Of a stretch of DNA of 64,000 nt, positions 2,784-13,425 are shown piece by piece (positions within the stretch are counted from its first letter, which is position 1; every line of letters starts with the position of its first letter). The translations under genes and the position numbers were made by a program. The notes below the pieces were generated by a model. That model was given only the letters and a program-made list of their open reading frames with translations, did not search any database and had not been told where the DNA came from. Source of the DNA: Thermoplasmata archaeon (GTDB lineage: Archaea; Thermoplasmatota; Thermoplasmata; Thermoplasmatales; Thermoplasmataceae). The stretch spans positions 1 to 64,000 of the forward strand of contig JAJZZE010000052.1 in the NCBI GenBank assembly GCA_021797735.1. The letters run 5' to 3'.

Positions 2784-3995
2784 TTAACCCTGGTTTATTT
2801 CATCCCTGAACTTCTTTAACAGTTCAGGGTCCTTTAATATCTCTTCCAGGACACTCTCTATTAACTGGGATTTAAATGCCTCATGGGCCTTCTCAATTAA
2901 TGACCTGGTAATCCCTGGCAGTACTGTAGATTTTTCTATGTTTGCCTCAATCTCTTTCTCCCTTCCCTGGTATTCTAAAGCCATAGCTTCATCAAACGGC
3001 AACCAGCAGTTATGGCAGTACCTGGCATTAGATGGGTTTAATTCATTGCATCTTAAGCATTTCTTGGGCTTGGCATCAGTAATAACCTCTTCCTTTGTGC
3101 TAATTCCATATGCCTTTAATATTGCATTATCCTGGTCTCTCCCTGAAAGATGTACATAGGTCTGTGTCATTCTGGATCCATGCACCCACCCCATCTGGTT
3201 TTCTAATGGTGCCTCTGGTACTCTGGATGCAAGCAATGAAGCCCTTGTATGCCTGAACAGATGTGGATATATTCTTTTATTAATGCCTGCCCTTTCTTTC
3301 AATCTTAAAATAATCTTCCTGGTAGACTGGTAATTTAACTGGGCATTTCCACTCTGGGTAAAGACATATCCATTAACGTTTCCCTTTGACTTTAAATAGT
3401 CCCTTAAGTACGCTATTGAATCACCAACAATCCTTACCTGCCTGTTACCTGTTTTCCCATGTACCCTGATAACCAGCCCATACTCATCATAAACTACCTC
3501 ACCTGGCCTTAATGAAAGTATTTCACCAATACGGCAGCCTGAATCATACAGCAATGAAATTAATGCCTTGTCCCTTAAACTGTTTGTTGAGCCAATCATT
3601 GCTTCAATATCACTTTTTGTAATCAGCTCCAGCTGCTTGTCATGTGAAGGCCTGTTGTATATTTTAATCTCTAAAAATTCAGGAACCGTCCCATAACGCC
3701 ATTTATAAAACCTCTTTAATACACCCTCATAATCTGATATTGTTTTATAAGTGTATTTTTCCCTGAACTTCAAAAACATATTTATTATATCATTCTTTTC
3801 AGGATCCAGGAATTTATCCCCAAGGTAATTATATATTACCCTTACCCTTACTAAATAAAAATATATCCCGTGTTCTGTTATTCCAGTAATCTTCAATTCA
3901 TTAATAAAATTAAAAATAATATTTCTTTCCTTCTCAGGAATATTATTATATCTTTTATACTCACCCATTATATCTCTTTCAATTTGATAAATCAT
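2784..3995 (-). CDS. Tyrosine recombinase (integrase) with C-terminal zinc ribbon
   Basis: A 403-residue site-specific recombinase of the XerC/D-like tyrosine family. An N-terminal SAM-like DNA-binding domain covers about residues 15-110 and the catalytic domain 120-295. The active site is complete: R155 (GCRIGE), K181, H245-x-x-R248 (HLFRHTR), H272 and nucleophile Y280 (TYVHL). A zinc ribbon follows (C313, C316, C327, C330), common in archaeal plasmid and element integrases, then a helical tail. It lies beside the right attachment repeat, as expected for the integrase of the element. ATG 3995 and an in-frame ATG nine codons later are both possible starts. The gene is not split by the att site, unlike SSV-type integrases. 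Confidence 0.9.
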   Translation of the reverse strand: MIYQIERDIMGEYKRYNNIPEKERNIIFNFINELKITGITEHGIYFYLVRVRVIYNYLGDKFLDPEKNDIINMFLKFREKYTYKTISDYEGVLKRFYKWRYGTVPEFLEIKIYNRPSHDKQLELITKSDIEAMIGSTNSLRDKALISLLYDSGCRIGEILSLRPGEVVYDEYGLVIRVHGKTGNRQVRIVGDSIAYLRDYLKSKGNVNGYVFTQSGNAQLNYQSTRKIILRLKERAGINKRIYPHLFRHTRASLLASRVPEAPLENQMGWVHGSRMTQTYVHLSGRDQDNAILKAYGISTKEEVITDAKPKKCLRCNELNPSNARYCHNCWLPFDEAMALEYQGREKEIEANIEKSTVLPGITRSLIEKAHEAFKSQLIESVLEEILKDPELLKKFRDEINQG

Positions 3996-5520: not shown

Positions 5521-8223
5521 TTAAATTAAATTCTTATCAATCGATACATCCAGATGGTTATTAACTACTTTCGGAACTATAGTTGTATTTACATACATTG
5601 ACAGGCTATCATGGTAATTTTCAGATTCAGATGTAAGAAGTATCAATTCTTCATGTATAAACGAATTGACAAACTGGAAAAATACCCTCCAGAATTCATT
5701 CTGATAAATCATTGAACTGCCTTTTTTCTGTATTGGTATAACATCATCAATTTTATAAATAACAAATAATGACCCTTCAAAATTTGATATGCTATTCTTT
5801 ACTTCAATGTACAGTTTGCCGGCTAGTGTCATTGCCTGACCTACGTCGTTAACAGGGCGCTGCCTGAAATATGCAGGTGAAAGTGAAAGCATATCTACGT
5901 CGCTGATATCCTCAAGATAGCTATTTATTTCCCTTTCATGCGACGTTGTAAGTATAATTACATGCCTGCCATTATTATGCGCATATTTAATAATTTCTGA
6001 TAATAAACGTATTTCATTGCCGGAGTTTCCGGACAATAATGCTATACCGTTTGAAACAGCTATACTTAAAATATTGCTTTCTGCATTAAAACTGAACTCA
6101 AAGTTTTTGGTGCTTTTCTTGCCTGATAAATTTATTATTGAATTGTCTTTAACCCTGGAAAACGGGTTAAACTTTGAAAGAATAGATCTGACGTCATCCT
6201 TTGGCTCAGGTGAGATGTCCTCATTATGAAATTCTTCAACTGCATGGTATGAATAATCTTCTTCTACAATGAAGGGAAACACAATATTATATAAATTAAT
6301 AATAGGGCTATCTTCTTTCTGGGATTTCATTAGATTAACAATTTCATTTGCCGTTCCTGGTCTATTATATTCAATTCCATTTTCTACAGAGTATTTTTCT
6401 AGTAAATTAACTATGCCATTTTTCTTCTTTAGCCAGTTTTCAACATCTTTTAACTGGCTATCATTATATATTTTATGATATTTTACATAGGCTTTTGCTA
6501 TAACTTCCGGGTCTATAAAGTCTTCAATTGTGGAATCTTCCACTCCAATTTTTGAGGGTATTAACTTTATCCTGCTTTCTGCTACATTCATTTTCTTGAG
6601 CTTTTCCTTTGTATCACGCCCATAAGCATTGTCGTTTAATATAATGTAGAATGGCGTTCCATTATATTGCATCCATAATATATATGAATATATATTGTTA
6701 GGCTTGTTCTGCCCTATAAAGGTAACATCTGTTCTTGGTATGTTATTTTTAATTATATTATATTTATTCCAGATGAAATTTAATAAAATTTGATCAGATT
6801 TAGTTTCAACAAAAAACACTGTTTTGTTTATAAATAAGTTATCCAGTATGCCATATCCAAGAGCGGCATATATTGGGGCAAGGACCTCTTTCTGTGTTTT
6901 CCATCCCCTTTTAAGGTTCATTAAATCAGTAATAGCACTTGAACTCCCGCTTCTCGAGAGAAGAAGAATGCTTTCAGGTATATCAAGCGGGATAAAAAAT
7001 GGTAGATGTGTGGTATATATTATGTATATGTTTTTCGGCAGGTTTTCCCTCAAAAATCCCAGAAAATTTTTCTGTTTTCCAGGATGTAATAATATTCCAA
7101 GGTCATCAAGCATTAAAAATGAGTTATTATATTCACCATCTGTCCTGGAATTTAAGTTAATAAATACACTTAGAAACCATTGAAAACCATCGCTTTCCAT
7201 GCTTGGTGGCACAAGGTAATCCCGGGATTCTTCCGGCGTCACCATTACTAATAATATAGGTGATGTTGATTGCTCATATCTAATTTCCAGCCTGCCCTCG
7301 TCAAAACCCCAGACCGTAGATAATCTTTTGCTGATAATATTGCTTGCTTTTTCAAAATATGCTACACGCTGATCATGGTCCATATACTCTATTCTATCAA
7401 GTTCAACCTGTGCCAGCCGCAGCAGGTTCATAAAAGTTTTATGTTCACCAGGATTTTCTTTTAATTCAGTTACTGTAACCCGATCCTCCAGCCTGTCATA
7501 TGCGGAAAAATAAATAAATTTTGGGATTTCACTAAGAATTTCAGGCACATCTGTCATTGAAAGCTGATCACGTAGCATTTTAATATTTTCATCTATCTGT
7601 GTTTTTATGTCACTTTCAAATTCTATATCATTGATGATATCAAGCAACATGAATATACGATTATAATCAAGATAATTATCATTAACTGCATTTTTTAAAT
7701 TTTCAAGCTGAATTAACATCTGTGATGTTAATTTAGGATTATTTGACTGAACTGCAATACTCCTTAAATCATCTATGAAGGGTAGCATTTTATTCTGTAT
7801 TTTACCGGAATTTATGACGTATTCCTTGGTGCCAATTTTAATGTGGTATGATGGATCAAAAAATTTTGTTACTGTTAATAATTCATCACTTTCTATGTTA
7901 CGCCGCATAGGTTCAAACTCAGCCTCTATTATTTTTATCTGATTACCATTTATTTTGCCATTCATATAATTAAAACCTATATCTCCAAGCTGTGTAATAT
8001 CAAATTTATCAAATTCTGTATCGTAATTTAGTTTCTCAAGCGCATTTAAAAGGCTGCTTTTGCCAGCCCTGTTTGATCCTATTAAAACTGTGGTTTGATT
8101 TTTAATATCAACATATCCGGAATCCACTATCGATCTAAAATTAGTAACTCTAAAACGTTTTAACCTATATTTTACCGATAAGTTCTGTTTATTTGGTTCA
8201 AAATTAAGGTTTAAATCCGTCAT
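5521..8223 (-). CDS. OLD-like ATPase with TOPRIM-like region and extra C-terminal domain
   Basis: A 900-residue protein. Residues 20-410 form an ABC/SMC-type ATPase: Walker A GSNRAGKSS (49-57), a signature-like SMESDGFQW (341-349), Walker B FLMLDDLGILLHP with Asp where Glu is usual, and switch His in YTTHLP (403-408). Residues 466-575 resemble the TOPRIM domain of OLD nucleases: VFFVETKSD keeps the Glu, FYIILNDNAYG is a weakened DxD, and TIEDFI follows. Residues 700-900 form an additional domain whose SGNSGNEIRLLSEIIKYA and VIILTTSHER look like a KaiC/RecA-type fold without a proper P-loop. The gene stands alone between two gaps of about 470 bases. OLD-family proteins often act in phage defence or DNA repair; the role here is inference. 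Confidence 0.75.
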   Translation of the reverse strand: MTDLNLNFEPNKQNLSVKYRLKRFRVTNFRSIVDSGYVDIKNQTTVLIGSNRAGKSSLLNALEKLNYDTEFDKFDITQLGDIGFNYMNGKINGNQIKIIEAEFEPMRRNIESDELLTVTKFFDPSYHIKIGTKEYVINSGKIQNKMLPFIDDLRSIAVQSNNPKLTSQMLIQLENLKNAVNDNYLDYNRIFMLLDIINDIEFESDIKTQIDENIKMLRDQLSMTDVPEILSEIPKFIYFSAYDRLEDRVTVTELKENPGEHKTFMNLLRLAQVELDRIEYMDHDQRVAYFEKASNIISKRLSTVWGFDEGRLEIRYEQSTSPILLVMVTPEESRDYLVPPSMESDGFQWFLSVFINLNSRTDGEYNNSFLMLDDLGILLHPGKQKNFLGFLRENLPKNIYIIYTTHLPFFIPLDIPESILLLSRSGSSSAITDLMNLKRGWKTQKEVLAPIYAALGYGILDNLFINKTVFFVETKSDQILLNFIWNKYNIIKNNIPRTDVTFIGQNKPNNIYSYILWMQYNGTPFYIILNDNAYGRDTKEKLKKMNVAESRIKLIPSKIGVEDSTIEDFIDPEVIAKAYVKYHKIYNDSQLKDVENWLKKKNGIVNLLEKYSVENGIEYNRPGTANEIVNLMKSQKEDSPIINLYNIVFPFIVEEDYSYHAVEEFHNEDISPEPKDDVRSILSKFNPFSRVKDNSIINLSGKKSTKNFEFSFNAESNILSIAVSNGIALLSGNSGNEIRLLSEIIKYAHNNGRHVIILTTSHEREINSYLEDISDVDMLSLSPAYFRQRPVNDVGQAMTLAGKLYIEVKNSISNFEGSLFVIYKIDDVIPIQKKGSSMIYQNEFWRVFFQFVNSFIHEELILLTSESENYHDSLSMYVNTTIVPKVVNNHLDVSIDKNLI

Positions 8224-10255: not shown

Positions 10256-10277
10256 ATATATGCATGTTTGCATATAT
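10256..10277. promoter_or_regulatory. Palindromic operator before vapB
   Basis: A perfect inverted repeat with 9-base arms (ATATATGCA and TGCATATAT) and a four-base spacer. It overlaps the TATA-like promoter and ends six bases before ATG 10284. VapB antitoxins bind such palindromes to repress their own operon, so this is the likely autoregulatory site. Confidence 0.6.
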
Positions 10278-10283
10278 GTATAC

Positions 10284-10520
10284 ATGGTTAAAGTTATATC
10301 AATACAGGATGATGTTTATGAGGAACTAAGAAAGCGCAAGGATGGAAAATCCTTTTCTGTGGTTATAAGGGGTCTGCTTAAAGAATCAGGTAAAAAACTC
10401 ACAATAGGTGATCTTTTTAGTTATGAAACTATACTTTCCGATGAAGAAGCCATTAAAATGGAGAAAGAGACGCTTGAAGCCAGAAAACGTTCTAAAACAA
10501 GGTTTATAAAGGAGTTGTAG
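10284..10520 (+). CDS. vapB: VapB-type antitoxin
   Basis: 78 residues from ATG 10284 (MVKVISIQDDVYEELRKRK). The N-terminal strand and helices fit the archaeal VapB (DUF217) group, with a C-terminal charged helix that would wrap the toxin. An in-frame ATG at 10260 lies inside the operator and is unlikely as the start. It neutralises the VapC toxin encoded immediately downstream and represses the operon. The gap to vapC is three bases. Confidence 0.8.
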   Translation: MVKVISIQDDVYEELRKRKDGKSFSVVIRGLLKESGKKLTIGDLFSYETILSDEEAIKMEKETLEARKRSKTRFIKEL

Positions 10521-10523
10521 GAT

Positions 10524-10928
10524 TTGGTTACAATACTTGATACAAATATATTGATAGACATGGCCCATCACGAGAATGATTTGTTTGTGGCTATGAATGA
10601 CGTTTTAAATCAGAATCCTGCTATCACTGTCATAAATAAATATGAGTTTCTTCGTGGTATTTTCATATCTAACAGTACCAAAGAGAAAAAGGAAAAACAG
10701 ATATCGTTCCTGAATCAATTCATGGTATATAGTTTCACACCTAATACCGTGCAACATTGTGCAGAATTATATTCAAGGCTAAGGAAAAATGGAAGGCTAA
10801 TAAATGAACTTGATATCCTAATTTTAGGAATATGTGTAGAAAACAGACTTAGCTTAATAACCAATGATCATGACTTTGATGGTATGGATCAGATTACAGG
10901 AATTAATATAAAGGTGCTTAATTACTAA
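10524..10928 (+). CDS. vapC: VapC toxin, PIN-domain ribonuclease
   Basis: 134 residues starting at TTG 10524. The PIN-domain acidic residues are present: D in ILDTNILID near the N-terminus, E in NKYEFLRG, D in NELDILILG and the ITNDHDFD motif near the C-terminus. These coordinate Mg2+ or Mn2+ for RNA cleavage; VapC toxins usually cut tRNA or rRNA. The gene forms a two-gene toxin-antitoxin operon with vapB. The length is typical and no catalytic residue is missing. Confidence 0.85.
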   Translation: MVTILDTNILIDMAHHENDLFVAMNDVLNQNPAITVINKYEFLRGIFISNSTKEKKEKQISFLNQFMVYSFTPNTVQHCAELYSRLRKNGRLINELDILILGICVENRLSLITNDHDFDGMDQITGINIKVLNY

Positions 10929-11051
10929 GATTAATATATCAAGAGATATAATATTAAATGATGATGTTTGCAGTAAAAAATGATAAATGGAAAATAGGTA
11001 TTAAATGTGTTTGTTAATACAACAGTTCTTAAACTGGATGAGGGTATAAAA

Positions 11052-11723
11052 ATGGGAAATAGTATTACATTGAATAATAACTACAGTTCATCAAAGGTTA
11101 CAGTATCAGGAAATAAGATTAACCTTACTATAACTAATCAACTTTCTAAGAAGAATATTATTATACCACAGAATAATAAAATAAAAGGAATACATAATTC
11201 ACCGGAGGTCTCGGATAATGTTTTATCGTCTAGAAGTGTACATCTTAAATTTCCAAAAGATTATGCAGCTGCACTTGTAGTTACAAAAATAGGCGTGTCA
11301 TCTGTAAGTACGGATTCTCTGTCATTTATTGTGGGCGTTATGGGTGAAGTAGTCCCTGCTGATGCAGATGCCGCAATTGGTGCACTTGCAGGCTTATCTG
11401 CGGCTTCTATAGTGGGTGCTGTTGTAGTTGGTGCAGTTATAGCTGCACTTGCTGCTGATTACGCAGCTTTATATTATTACGCTTCAAGCGGTCATTATCC
11501 TACTATGTATTTAGACATAGGTGTTAGTATAGGAACGCAATGGTGGAATTCTTACGATATTGGAACTTATGGGGAAGAGGGAGCATTTACAGGAAACTAT
11601 AATTCAGGCAATGGCATGTATATACCACTGGTATCAACATCTACAAATCTCAATGCTTTCATGCCACATGCAGGTGTATGGAATCCTTATGCTGAACCTC
11701 CATGGCATTTATACAAAAACTAA
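11052..11723 (+). CDS. Hypothetical protein with Gly/Ala-rich hydrophobic core (possible bacteriocin-like)
   Basis: About 223 residues from ATG 11052, chosen because a GAGG ribosome-binding site lies eight bases upstream; the frame is open from 11007. The N-terminal third is polar and Asn/Ser-rich with no signal peptide. The middle has an Ala/Gly/Val-rich membrane-active-looking segment (GALAGLSAASIVGAVVVG, then AALAADYAALYYYA). The C-terminus is aromatic and ends PPWHLYKN. No Cys is present. A glycine-zipper segment followed directly by a small membrane protein resembles bacteriocin-immunity loci, but no homology is recognised and the role is inference. The accessory setting (VapBC, IS256) fits. 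Confidence 0.5.
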   Translation: MGNSITLNNNYSSSKVTVSGNKINLTITNQLSKKNIIIPQNNKIKGIHNSPEVSDNVLSSRSVHLKFPKDYAAALVVTKIGVSSVSTDSLSFIVGVMGEVVPADADAAIGALAGLSAASIVGAVVVGAVIAALAADYAALYYYASSGHYPTMYLDIGVSIGTQWWNSYDIGTYGEEGAFTGNYNSGNGMYIPLVSTSTNLNAFMPHAGVWNPYAEPPWHLYKN

Positions 11724-11737
11724 GTCTGGGTAATAAT

Positions 11738-12025
11738 ATGATAAATATATATATTATGGTAGTCAGCGTAAATACATTTATTCATTTTTTACTTTATGAT
11801 ATTTCAATATCTTACATATGGACATTTATAACACTTTTATTTGTATATGTTGGTATAAGAGCACTATTTAAACGTAAGGCTACAGCAAAGCCGGTAAGAA
11901 TAATAACAATCATCGAAATTGCATTAAGCATATATGTTTTTGGCATTTTAGGTATAGCTTTTATTATTATACTTGTGCTTCCGTTTTATATAATAGATCG
12001 TGTACATTATTTTGTGTATTTATAA
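11738..12025 (+). CDS. Small membrane protein (possible immunity partner)
   Basis: 95 residues from ATG 11738, preceded by a GGGT ribosome-binding site; an earlier in-frame ATG at 11702 overlaps the upstream gene and is less likely. Hydrophobic segments around residues 4-20, 25-40 and 60-85 predict three membrane helices with basic loops (FKRKATAKPVR). It starts 14 bases after the Gly/Ala-rich protein, so the two are co-transcribed. An immunity role is speculative. Its 3' end runs to the left edge of the IS256 element and the last codons overlap the transposase stop region. Confidence 0.5.
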   Translation: MINIYIMVVSVNTFIHFLLYDISISYIWTFITLLFVYVGIRALFKRKATAKPVRIITIIEIALSIYVFGILGIAFIIILVLPFYIIDRVHYFVYL

Positions 12026-13165
12026 AGGGTACCTCTTCTGAAACATTTCTCTTATGCCGTCCCTGCATTTAAAGTAACCGTTCATCTTCCTGAATATGTG
12101 CTTTGAATTAAACTCTACAGATTTAAAATAGAATATTTTCATTGCTGAATCCTGATCAGGGAATGATGATACAGTTTTTATCCTTCTTCTTATTTCCTCA
12201 TTTTCCCTTTCTATTACATTTGTTGATTTTAATGATCTTCTAATATTCTCAGGGTAATCATAGAACCTGAATAGCTTACCGGTACTCTTCTCCGTATTGT
12301 ATACTATATCAGGATATTTATTATTCCATTTAATTTTAAAGTCATTGAATCTATCTACTGCATCCTTCTTATCATTACAGTTAAACATTTTATTAGCATC
12401 ATTTACTATCTCCTCAGAATCTCTCTCTTTTACCTTAGATTTTATTCCCCTTAAATAGTGTATGGTACATGACTGAAAATCTGCCCTGGGGAAGATCCTC
12501 ATTACCTCCTCATCTAGATTATTTATTCCATCTGCTATAAACAATAGTGGCTCTGTTAATCCCCTGTTATACAGATCTGTTAATACATCCCGGTAGTTGT
12601 TATGTGATTCCTTTACCGTAAGATAGAAACCCAATATCTCATATTCACCTGTTTCCTTTATACCTATTGCAAATATTACAGGTTCCTTATCAACCGGAGC
12701 TCTTCTTAAATAGAAGAATAATCCATCTAAATATACAGCAATATACCTTTTATCCAGTTTTCTGTTCAGGAATGTATTTATTTCTTCTATTGCTGCATCT
12801 GTTATCTTTGATACTGATGATGGAGAATATTTATTATTAAATAGAGTCTTTAATATATTTGATATTCTCCTTGTTGATACCCCATTTGAATACATTGATA
12901 TTATTAAATCATCCATGGCTATAGCTCTGTTATTATAATCTATTACAGCACTGTGGAAACTGTTATCCCTGTTTCTTGGTACCTTCATATCATCTATTTC
13001 ACCATATTTAGTTTTTAAATTCCTTGTGTAATAGCCATTCTTTATTCCTGTATTCTCTGATAGGAATACATCCTGCTCTATCTTCATTATCTTTTCTATT
13101 TCCTTTTTCACTGTCTCTTTTATTATACTGTCAATATCAGATATGTTTATATTGTTATATTCCAT
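12020..13165 (-). CDS. IS256-family (Mutator-type) transposase
   Basis: 381 residues. The DDE catalytic residues are visible: D147 (VYLDGLFF), D212 (FIADGINN) and E319 (TNVIERENEEIRRR). The C/H motif of this family, CTIHYLRG, is at 233-240. A strong ribosome-binding site GGAGG precedes ATG 13165. The protein seems complete and functional. The C-terminal codons (FQKRYPL) are written by the left terminal repeat, and the TAA stop lies in flanking chromosomal DNA, so the stop depends on the insertion site. The enzyme moves the element by cut-and-paste or copy-out transposition. Confidence 0.92.
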   Translation of the reverse strand: MEYNNINISDIDSIIKETVKKEIEKIMKIEQDVFLSENTGIKNGYYTRNLKTKYGEIDDMKVPRNRDNSFHSAVIDYNNRAIAMDDLIISMYSNGVSTRRISNILKTLFNNKYSPSSVSKITDAAIEEINTFLNRKLDKRYIAVYLDGLFFYLRRAPVDKEPVIFAIGIKETGEYEILGFYLTVKESHNNYRDVLTDLYNRGLTEPLLFIADGINNLDEEVMRIFPRADFQSCTIHYLRGIKSKVKERDSEEIVNDANKMFNCNDKKDAVDRFNDFKIKWNNKYPDIVYNTEKSTGKLFRFYDYPENIRRSLKSTNVIERENEEIRRRIKTVSSFPDQDSAMKIFYFKSVEFNSKHIFRKMNGYFKCRDGIREMFQKRYPL

Positions 13166-13202
13166 ATTTCATTACCTCCTTGTATTCAGAAGAGGTATTC
13201 CC
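12027..13202. mobile_element. IS256-family insertion sequence
   Basis: Terminal inverted repeats GGGTACCTCTTCTGAA (12027-12042) and, read inwards from the right, GGGAATACCTCTTCTGAA (13185-13202) bound a single transposase gene. The right repeat has two extra bases. This family usually makes 8-9 bp target duplications; none is clear at these edges (GTATTTAT on the left and GTTATTTA on the right are only similar), so the true ends may extend a few bases outward. Confidence 0.8.
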
Positions 13203-13425
13203 TCCTGTTATTTAATAGATTATTCTATCTGTAACAGGGGGTTTATATTTACACAAAATATTATACACAACCTATAATAATTGAGTATGCGTTTTATAAA
13301 GTAAAAAAATTAAAAAGAGAAAAGAGCTTAAGCAATAATTAATTTCAAGCATTTATTATAAATTTAATATAATTATTTAAAATATATAAAATTATAAAAA
13401 AATTATTTTTAAGATTAAAACAGAA

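What the first reader, a model, noticed from the sequence alone, without database searches (positions are those of the whole stretch)
11052..12025. Possible archaeal bacteriocin and immunity pair
A 223-residue protein with a glycine-zipper-like Ala/Gly/Val segment and aromatic end is followed after 14 bases by a small three-helix membrane protein, in accessory DNA between VapBC and an IS. This resembles antimicrobial-immunity loci, of which few are known outside halophiles and Sulfolobus. No homology supports it directly.
Basis: inference. Interest (0 to 1): 0.6.

Follow-up and report, generated by a model that had tools for sequence, protein, structure and literature searches.

The report
Damaged copy of archaeal toxin–immunity pair
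These two genes are the damaged remains of one member of a varied family of gene pairs in acid-loving archaea, each pairing a secreted protein with a small membrane protein, that look like weapons and their antidotes, although no function has been tested.

Summary
The two ORFs exist where stated, but neither is a whole gene. P1 (11052-11723) is a 5'-truncated member of a Thermoplasmatales family of secreted ~240-415 aa proteins. Homology resumes at 10933, five bases after the vapC stop; signal peptide and first ~56 codons are gone, the remaining 5' piece carries a frameshift and a nonsense codon, and the stop after the conserved C-terminal PPW is lost. P2 (11738-12025) is cut near its 3' end by an IS (11996-13272); its last ten codons are IS DNA and its native tail lies beyond the IS.

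Linkage is real: 51 of 58 gene-1 loci have an adjacent co-directional small multi-TM gene, against 0 of 38 other window ORFs. Gene-1 families A and C share only a leader; two family-C alleles at one Ferroplasma locus agree in the N-terminal half but diverge over hairpin and C-terminus, with an extra TM gene. Gene 2 varies far more than gene 1. In this genome gene 1 is broken at 3 of 3 family-A loci while two gene-2 copies stay intact.

Best reading: polymorphic, probably membrane-active secreted toxins with membrane immunity proteins, resembling (not homologous to) SSV9 B310/C108. Function untested; the window copy is a relic.

The parts
10260..10928 (+). vapBC toxin-antitoxin cassette (VapB 10260-10520, VapC 10524-10928); its right edge coincides with the break in gene 1
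   Evidence: Pfam VAPB_antitox 1.3e-13 and PIN 2.8e-11; same edge in the orthologous site of G007, where DNA similarity to the window ends at window 10932
10933..11051 (+). 5' remnant of gene 1 with one frameshift and one in-frame stop; leader and first ~56 codons absent
   Evidence: blastn against full-length L008 starts at window 10933; sequence
11052..11723 (+). gene 1 (P1), family A, 5'-truncated ORF of 223 aa; conserved part ends at 11705, then five extra residues before a stop
11346..11477 (+). Ala/Gly/Val-rich hydrophobic segment of P1 (about residues 99-142), the putative membrane-inserting hairpin
   Evidence: hydropathy run; two helices at the matching place in a low-confidence model of the relative L036
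11738..11995 (+). gene 2 (P2), native part: membrane protein with 2-3 hydrophobic segments, putative immunity protein
11996..12025 (+). last ten codons of the P2 ORF (nine residues and stop), which are IS sequence
11996..13272 (-). IS with Mutator-family transposase (ORF 12020-13165) inserted in the 3' end of P2; duplicated TATAATA at 11989-11995 and 13273-13279
   Evidence: Pfam Transposase_mut 1.1e-82; other copies in the genome match window 11995-13272; inverted ends 11989-12026 / 13242-13279
13280..13342 (+). stranded native 3' end of P2 (20 residues and stop), similar to the C-tail of the G007 protein
   Evidence: one search compared with L148

Best explanation
The pair is a decayed copy of a polymorphic secreted-toxin / membrane-immunity system of Thermoplasmatales. 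Intact gene 1 encodes a Sec-type leader, a strand-rich N-terminal part, a variable Ala/Gly-rich hydrophobic hairpin and a conserved aromatic C-terminal part. The protein is exported, inserts its hairpin into the membrane of a related archaeon and makes it leak, which at very low external pH would be lethal (inferred). Gene 2, next to it, encodes a small membrane protein that would bind the cognate hairpin in the producer's own membrane and block it (inferred). C-terminal halves and gene 2 change together by recombination, and displaced or orphan gene-2 copies persist. In the window, vapBC adjoins the break that removed the leader, and an IS cut gene 2 near its end, so gene 1 can no longer be secreted; P2 might retain some protective function. 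Shown: linkage, leader, polymorphism, damage. Inferred: toxicity, membrane leakage, immunity.
For: Linkage: 51 of 58 gene-1 loci against 1 of 39 window ORFs (that one is this pair) and 4 of 63 ORFs in flanks of L036-L047, two of which are themselves such pairs. Shared leader with unrelated bodies: family A against family C profiles align only over 47 leader columns, E 9e-9. Allelic swap at one locus: about 92% DNA identity to codon ~147, below 50% through most of hairpin, C-terminus and an extra TM gene, then 77% in the next TM gene. Hairpin is a conservation minimum in family C, 0.27 against 0.50 before and 0.44 after. Gene 2 more variable: in family C 171 of 171 gene-1 pairs but 11 of 171 gene-2 pairs reach E<=1e-3. 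Between F. acidiphilum and F. acidarmanus two family-D gene-2 copies differ by 12 nonsynonymous and 0 synonymous changes, one gene 1 by 13 and 22 (Fisher p 1e-4; small numbers). Orphan gene 2: gene 1 broken at 3 of 3 family-A loci of this genome, gene 2 with native tail at two of them. Hydrophobic segment in 39 of 43 gene-1 proteins. Experimental analogues: SSV9 B310/C108, and CDI ionophore toxins with small hydrophobic, highly polymorphic immunity proteins.
Against: No function is tested. No Pfam or NCBIfam family reached its cut-off and no convincing PHROG was found. The AlphaFold2 model is poor (mean pLDDT 45) and Foldseek gave nothing at E<=1e-3. There is no homology to SSV9 B310 or C108, and in SSV9 the TM gene alone did not protect. 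Family A shows no clear conservation minimum at the hairpin (0.34 against 0.30 before and 0.50 after). The leader is also used by ~500-600 aa proteins with no adjacent TM gene, so it is not exclusive to the pairs. Gene 2 is about a third the length of gene 1, so its more frequent survival is partly expected by chance. Between F. acidiphilum and F. acidarmanus three cassettes are identical, so they give no sign of diversifying selection.
Confidence: 0.58

Rival explanations
1. Gene 1 is a secreted toxin, but gene 2 is not immunity: it helps export, processing or membrane release, and the producer is protected by gene 1 itself, as reported for SSV9 B310.
For: SSV9 B310 protected and C108 alone did not (PMC8628083 sections 6 and 9); same order of a ~300-aa leader protein then a small 3-TM protein.
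Against: Gene 2 diverges much faster than gene 1, is added at a swapped allele and survives where gene 1 is lost; a generic helper would be expected to be conserved and lost with gene 1.
Confidence: 0.2
2. The pairs are a surface recognition or adhesion system (self/non-self discrimination, mating or aggregation), with a secreted variable protein and a membrane anchor, like the hypervariable VARTIG islands of Thermococcales.
For: Hypervariable leader protein followed by variable membrane proteins is also the VARTIG layout, for which the authors leave several functions open (PMC8416519 passages). No toxin domain is recognisable.
Against: The hydrophobic Ala/Gly hairpin and single paired TM gene fit membrane-active toxins better; orphan gene-2 survival is not expected of an anchor.
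Confidence: 0.13
3. The genes belong to an archaeal virus or mobile element (envelope, entry or superinfection exclusion) and were captured on chromosomes.
For: SSV toxins lie in viral genomes; the window pair sits beside vapBC and an IS, with an integrase gene at 2784-3995.
Against: No relative in viral contigs (54 pattern matches, none confirmed) and no tblastn match in 50,697 phage records; the loci whose neighbours were read lie among ordinary chromosomal genes such as nitroreductase, NUDIX and a dehydrogenase.
Confidence: 0.06
4. Ordinary secreted or envelope protein with a membrane partner and no role in conflict.
For: No functional domain or activity is known.
Against: Patchy presence (19 of 121 relatives), multiple diversified copies per genome, frequent decay and allelic swapping are unusual for a housekeeping protein.
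Confidence: 0.03

Closest known systems
Fusellovirus killer toxins SSV9 B310 + C108 (and SSV11 p29, SSV1 a291)
   Same: About 300-aa protein with N-terminal signal peptide, followed by a small TM gene; strong diversity; loss of the leader abolishes activity (B252; SSV14 allele lacks about 60 N-terminal residues), as has happened to the window copy. From PMC8628083 (sections 6, 9 and passages) and PMC13431529 (passages).
   Different: No detectable homology of either protein; viral not chromosomal; B310 is described as without a transmembrane domain, while most gene-1 proteins here have a hydrophobic hairpin.
CDI ionophore toxins and CdiI immunity proteins of Proteobacteria
   Same: Helical membrane domain (one group with a putative glycine zipper); small very hydrophobic immunity proteins of 72-100 residues, typically ~30% identical within a group; cognate pairs only (PMC11630599, abstract and passages).
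   Different: Delivered by contact as the C-terminus of CdiA, five-helix bundle; here a free leader protein with a predicted two-helix hairpin; no homology found through Pfam, NCBIfam or PHROGs.
Pore-forming bacteriocins (colicin N / pyocin S5 type) with 3-4 TM immunity proteins
   Same: Immunity by a small membrane protein encoded next to the toxin gene; orphan and additional immunity genes (PMC5358913, abstract and passages).
   Different: Modular Gram-negative bacteriocins that dock on outer-membrane receptors; no sequence relation found.
Sulfolobicin SulA/SulB (+SulC)
   Same: Two proteins with signal peptides from a thermoacidophilic archaeon, reported in PMC8628083 (passages); sulA, sulB, sulC named in PMC3718332 (passages).
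VARTIG islands of Thermococcales
   Same: Hypervariable leader protein first in a co-directed array of small, mostly membrane, proteins with recombination (PMC8416519 abstract and passages).
   Different: Proteins mostly over 500 aa with Ig domains; none seen here.

Membership tests
SSV-type secreted killer toxin locus | ~300-aa protein with N-terminal signal sequence | tested here: met
   Met by intact relatives (hydropathy of the leader); not met by the window copy, which lost it.
SSV-type secreted killer toxin locus | Adjacent downstream small TM gene | tested here: met
   51 of 58 loci.
SSV-type secreted killer toxin locus | Sequence homology to B310 / C108 | tested here: not met
   hhalign probability 0.1-0.2; blastp E 3.6.
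SSV-type secreted killer toxin locus | Location in a fusellovirus genome | tested here: not met
   No relatives in viral contigs or phages.
SSV-type secreted killer toxin locus | Growth inhibition by supernatant | not testable with these tools
   Needs culture work.
Polymorphic toxin system | Shared N-terminal trafficking region with diverse C-terminal bodies | tested here: met
   A and C profiles share only the leader; L078/L080 alleles.
Polymorphic toxin system | Adjacent immunity-like gene, with orphan or extra copies | tested here: met
   Extra TM gene at L078; gene 2 without intact gene 1. Genomic pattern only; immunity not shown.
Polymorphic toxin system | Recognisable toxin domain | tested here: not met
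   No Pfam or NCBIfam domain above cut-off.
Pore-forming / ionophore bacteriocin | Hydrophobic helical membrane domain in the toxin | tested here: inconclusive
   Hydrophobic segment in 39 of 43; helices in a model of mean pLDDT 45.
Pore-forming / ionophore bacteriocin | Dissipation of membrane potential | not testable with these tools
   Needs biochemistry.
Sulfolobicin SulA/B | Homology to SulA or SulB | not tested
   Sequences not at hand; PMC3165506 not held.
Known curated bacteriocin families | Score above a curated NCBIfam or Pfam cut-off | tested here: not met
   None above cut-off; best bacteriocin-like score NF053514 at 18.9 bits against a cut-off of 40, for L047.

The most novel reading that the evidence does not exclude
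Thermoplasmatales carry a not yet described class of polymorphic archaeocins: shared-leader proteins with swappable hydrophobic hairpins that collapse the steep proton gradient of acidophile neighbours, each neutralised by a matched, fast-evolving membrane protein; strains such as the window's species have lost family-A toxins but kept antidotes, living as immune non-producers.
Probability: 0.35. Interest if true: 0.8.

Novelty: new variant of a known kind. Interest (0 to 1): 0.58.

Why it matters
Few protein weapons of archaea are proven. The intact pairs occur in the sequenced strains Ferroplasma acidarmanus Fer1 (L036; about six pairs read here) and, by its 1,826,943-base size, F. acidiphilum Y (G003), so the toxin-immunity idea can be tested directly. 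If right, it would add acid mine drainage archaea to the groups with a polymorphic arsenal, give a possible reason for strain replacement in these biofilms, and suggest that the proton gradient of extreme acidophiles is a target in warfare between close relatives.

Tried and rejected
Intact bacteriocin-immunity pair in the window: rejected because gene 1 has lost its leader and gene 2 is cut by an IS. Phage tail tube (PF23849, E 0.014) and DsbD_TM: below cut-off, not shared by relatives. Distant-phylum matches of the family A profile (G193, G252, G274, G297, G337) cover mostly the leader and were not counted as members; the G113 match lies in a transporter-like ORF. Structure route: one AlphaFold2 model of L036 with 11 sequences had mean pLDDT 45 and its PDB search gave nothing at E<=1e-3; I draw only the hairpin suggestion from it. 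PDB profile search: no match. Viral contigs and phages: no relatives. Codon-position comparison of gene-2 paralogues in this genome (40/29/47 changes at positions 1/2/3 for window against C36) is too saturated to prove selection. Gene-2 search with P2 found 9 places in 6 of 121 genomes; five adjoin a gene 1 or its remnant, one is the G007 site without gene 1, three weak ones (E 1e-3 to 7e-3) were not assigned. Papers that might already name these families: Makarova et al. 2019 (mBio; recalled and cited in PMC8416519) is not held, so prior description cannot be excluded; nine literature searches showed no report of such a system in Thermoplasmatales in their listings.

Rows dropped: the 58 loci and the 43 were picked by hand; leader-only matches and short remnants were left out, and F. 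acidiphilum / F. acidarmanus near-duplicates are kept in the 58, so these are not independent events. In one search no adjacent TM gene was found by the script for L014, L019, L020 and L067 and only one TM for L058, L117 and L126; for L020 an adjacent 91-aa hydrophobic ORF is visible beyond a broken gene 1. Of 28 leader-search loci put through, 21 had a downstream ORF with at least two hydrophobic segments (three of these ORFs are 276-278 aa, larger than usual), seven had none or could not be parsed.

Full report
What is in the window. P1 alone matches nothing curated (best Pfam E 0.014, below cut-off) and P2 nothing. The neighbours are a nitroreductase, a NUDIX protein, VapBC, a Mutator-family transposase and an aldehyde dehydrogenase (named from recall; its orthologues were found).

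P1 is a truncated gene. Searching 121 genomes (relatives, own included) gave matches in 19. Full-length relatives of this type are about 280-340 aa, begin with a leader such as MNKKKLIIGVLIAAIFVM and end in WNPxxEPPW. The closest, L008 (G007, 58% identity), aligns with the window DNA from 10933, five bases after the vapC stop at 10928; within 10933-11006 there is a one-base gap and an in-frame TAG. The first ~56 codons including the leader are missing. At the other end the stop after PPW is lost and five residues are added. So the 223-aa ORF is what is left of a secreted protein.

P2 is cut by the IS. Other copies of the IS in the genome match window 11995-13272, inverted ends lie at 11989-12026 and 13242-13279, and TATAATA flanks both sides. 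The last ten codons of the P2 ORF (nine residues and the stop) are therefore IS DNA. Beyond the IS, 13280-13342 reads IEYAFYKVKKLKREKSLSNN and a stop, like the tail EHAFYRLKKTIRKKI of the G007 protein. All hydrophobic segments of P2 precede the insertion.

History of the site. The dehydrogenase was found in 9 of 10 genus genomes, and flanks of eight were read. G007 has nitroreductase, NUDIX, vapBC, a 44-48 residue P2 fragment and the dehydrogenase, with no P1 and no IS; its similarity to the window vapBC ends at window 10932. G004 has no vapBC but a P1 fragment before the dehydrogenase. The other six show no trace of the pair there; for two of them (G002, G008) only about 2.3 kb and 0.7 kb of flank was read. 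The simplest account (inferred) is an old pair at this site, broken next to vapBC before the window species and G007 parted, then eroded differently.

The family is a set of linked pairs. Using relatives I compiled 58 gene-1 loci by hand in five sequence types (A-E). In 51 of 58 the next co-directional ORF is a small protein with at least two hydrophobic segments, in 54 of 58 with at least one; by the same script 1 of 39 window ORFs of 200 aa or more has such a neighbour, and that one is P1 itself. In the flanks of L036-L047 it is 4 of 63, two of which are further such pairs. Near-identical loci of F. acidiphilum and F. acidarmanus inflate the 58. Type A was strong only in the same taxonomic family f1 (16 of 389 genomes of the phylum at E<=1e-3, five of them weak and mostly leader-only); type C reached 12 of 389 at E<=1e-6, one outside f1 but in the same order. 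No relatives in viral contigs or phage records.

Polymorphism. Types A and C share only the leader: hhalign aligns 47 columns at E 9e-9 and nothing else. At one locus beside a gene that I recall as Hsp20-like, F. acidarmanus (G009) carries L078 and F. acidiphilum (G003) carries L080: DNA identity is about 92% up to codon ~147 of gene 1, about 70% to codon ~213, then below 50% over most of the hydrophobic stretch and C-terminus; L078 has an extra TM gene, and identity returns to about 77% in the second TM gene. By protein, identity is 49/60, 57/60 and 47/60 in the first three blocks and 22/62 over the hairpin. In family C the hairpin is a conservation minimum; in family A it is not clearly so. 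In family C all 171 gene-1 pairs but only 11 of 171 gene-2 pairs are recognisably alike. In family D the gene-2 copies of the two Ferroplasma differ by 4 and 8 nonsynonymous and no synonymous changes, gene 1 of one pair by 13 and 22; three other cassettes are identical. In F. acidarmanus one family-D gene 1 is truncated while its gene 2 is open. The leader itself is not exclusive: ~500-600 aa proteins without an adjacent TM gene also carry it.

Decay of toxin, survival of partner. In the window's genome family A has three gene-1 remnants: C3 (window), C36 (C-terminal piece only) and C22 (internal deletion). Next to the last two lie gene-2 ORFs with native tails. Gene 2 is shorter, so part of this is expected by chance. 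The same genome has another leader pair, L133/L202 (267 + 87 aa), that looks intact.

How it probably works. Most gene-1 proteins (39 of 43) have an internal hydrophobic Ala/Gly-rich segment; a low-confidence model of L036 shows a strand-rich N-terminal part and two hydrophobic helices at 155-177 and 184-212. Secreted protein, hydrophobic hairpin, co-encoded variable membrane protein and orphan antidotes together suggest a membrane-active toxin with membrane immunity. The mechanism resembles CDI ionophores with very hydrophobic polymorphic immunity proteins (PMC11630599) and pore-forming bacteriocins with TM immunity (PMC5358913). The closest archaeal precedent is SSV9 B310/C108: B310 with leader inhibits growth, the leaderless form does not, and B310 itself protects while C108 alone does not (PMC8628083); in SSV1 a291 a mutation at the signal-peptide cleavage site abolishes inhibition (PMC13431529 passages). 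Neither protein is homologous here, so this is similarity of layout, and the role of gene 2 as antidote remains inference.

Novelty. No Pfam or NCBIfam family reaches its cut-off and no PHROG fits convincingly. Two Thermoplasmatales genome papers, read only as passages, do not report it: F. acidiphilum (PMC5473848: no hit for toxin or bacteriocin) and E-plasma (PMC10354927: bacteriocin databases returned nothing). A 2019 survey of archaeal conflict systems was not available, so some families may already be listed there as candidates. I call it a new variant of a known kind: polymorphic secreted toxin and membrane immunity, in a new group and with unrelated sequences; the window copy itself is a relic.

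Noticed in passing
L078 (G009:C1:751500-756000) and L080 (G003:C1:1619500-1624000): Same Ferroplasma locus with swapped gene-1 C-terminal halves and an added TM gene in F. acidarmanus; the best natural experiment for testing the system.
   Followed up: yes
L049/L050, L065/L066, L072/L073: Three cassettes identical between F. acidiphilum and F. acidarmanus, with flanks 99.6-100% alike where aligned, while two other loci are 94-97% alike; possible recent exchange of whole segments.
   Followed up: partly
L198, L208, L209, L188: A ~500-600 aa Ferroplasma protein family with the same leader type but no adjacent TM gene; only a sub-threshold Pfam match.
   Followed up: partly
L210/L211 (377 + 129 aa), L195 (308 + 67 aa): Further leader-bearing gene pairs outside families A-E, suggesting the repertoire is larger than counted.
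   Followed up: no
window 10260-10928: vapBC cassette whose right edge coincides with the break in gene 1 and is shared with G007 but absent from the G004 site; it may mark a toxin-antitoxin insertion.
   Followed up: partly
window 5521-8223 (minus): 900-aa AAA ATPase (AAA_15/AAA_21) with a 97% relative in G004 over the 720 residues in view; function not examined.
   Followed up: no
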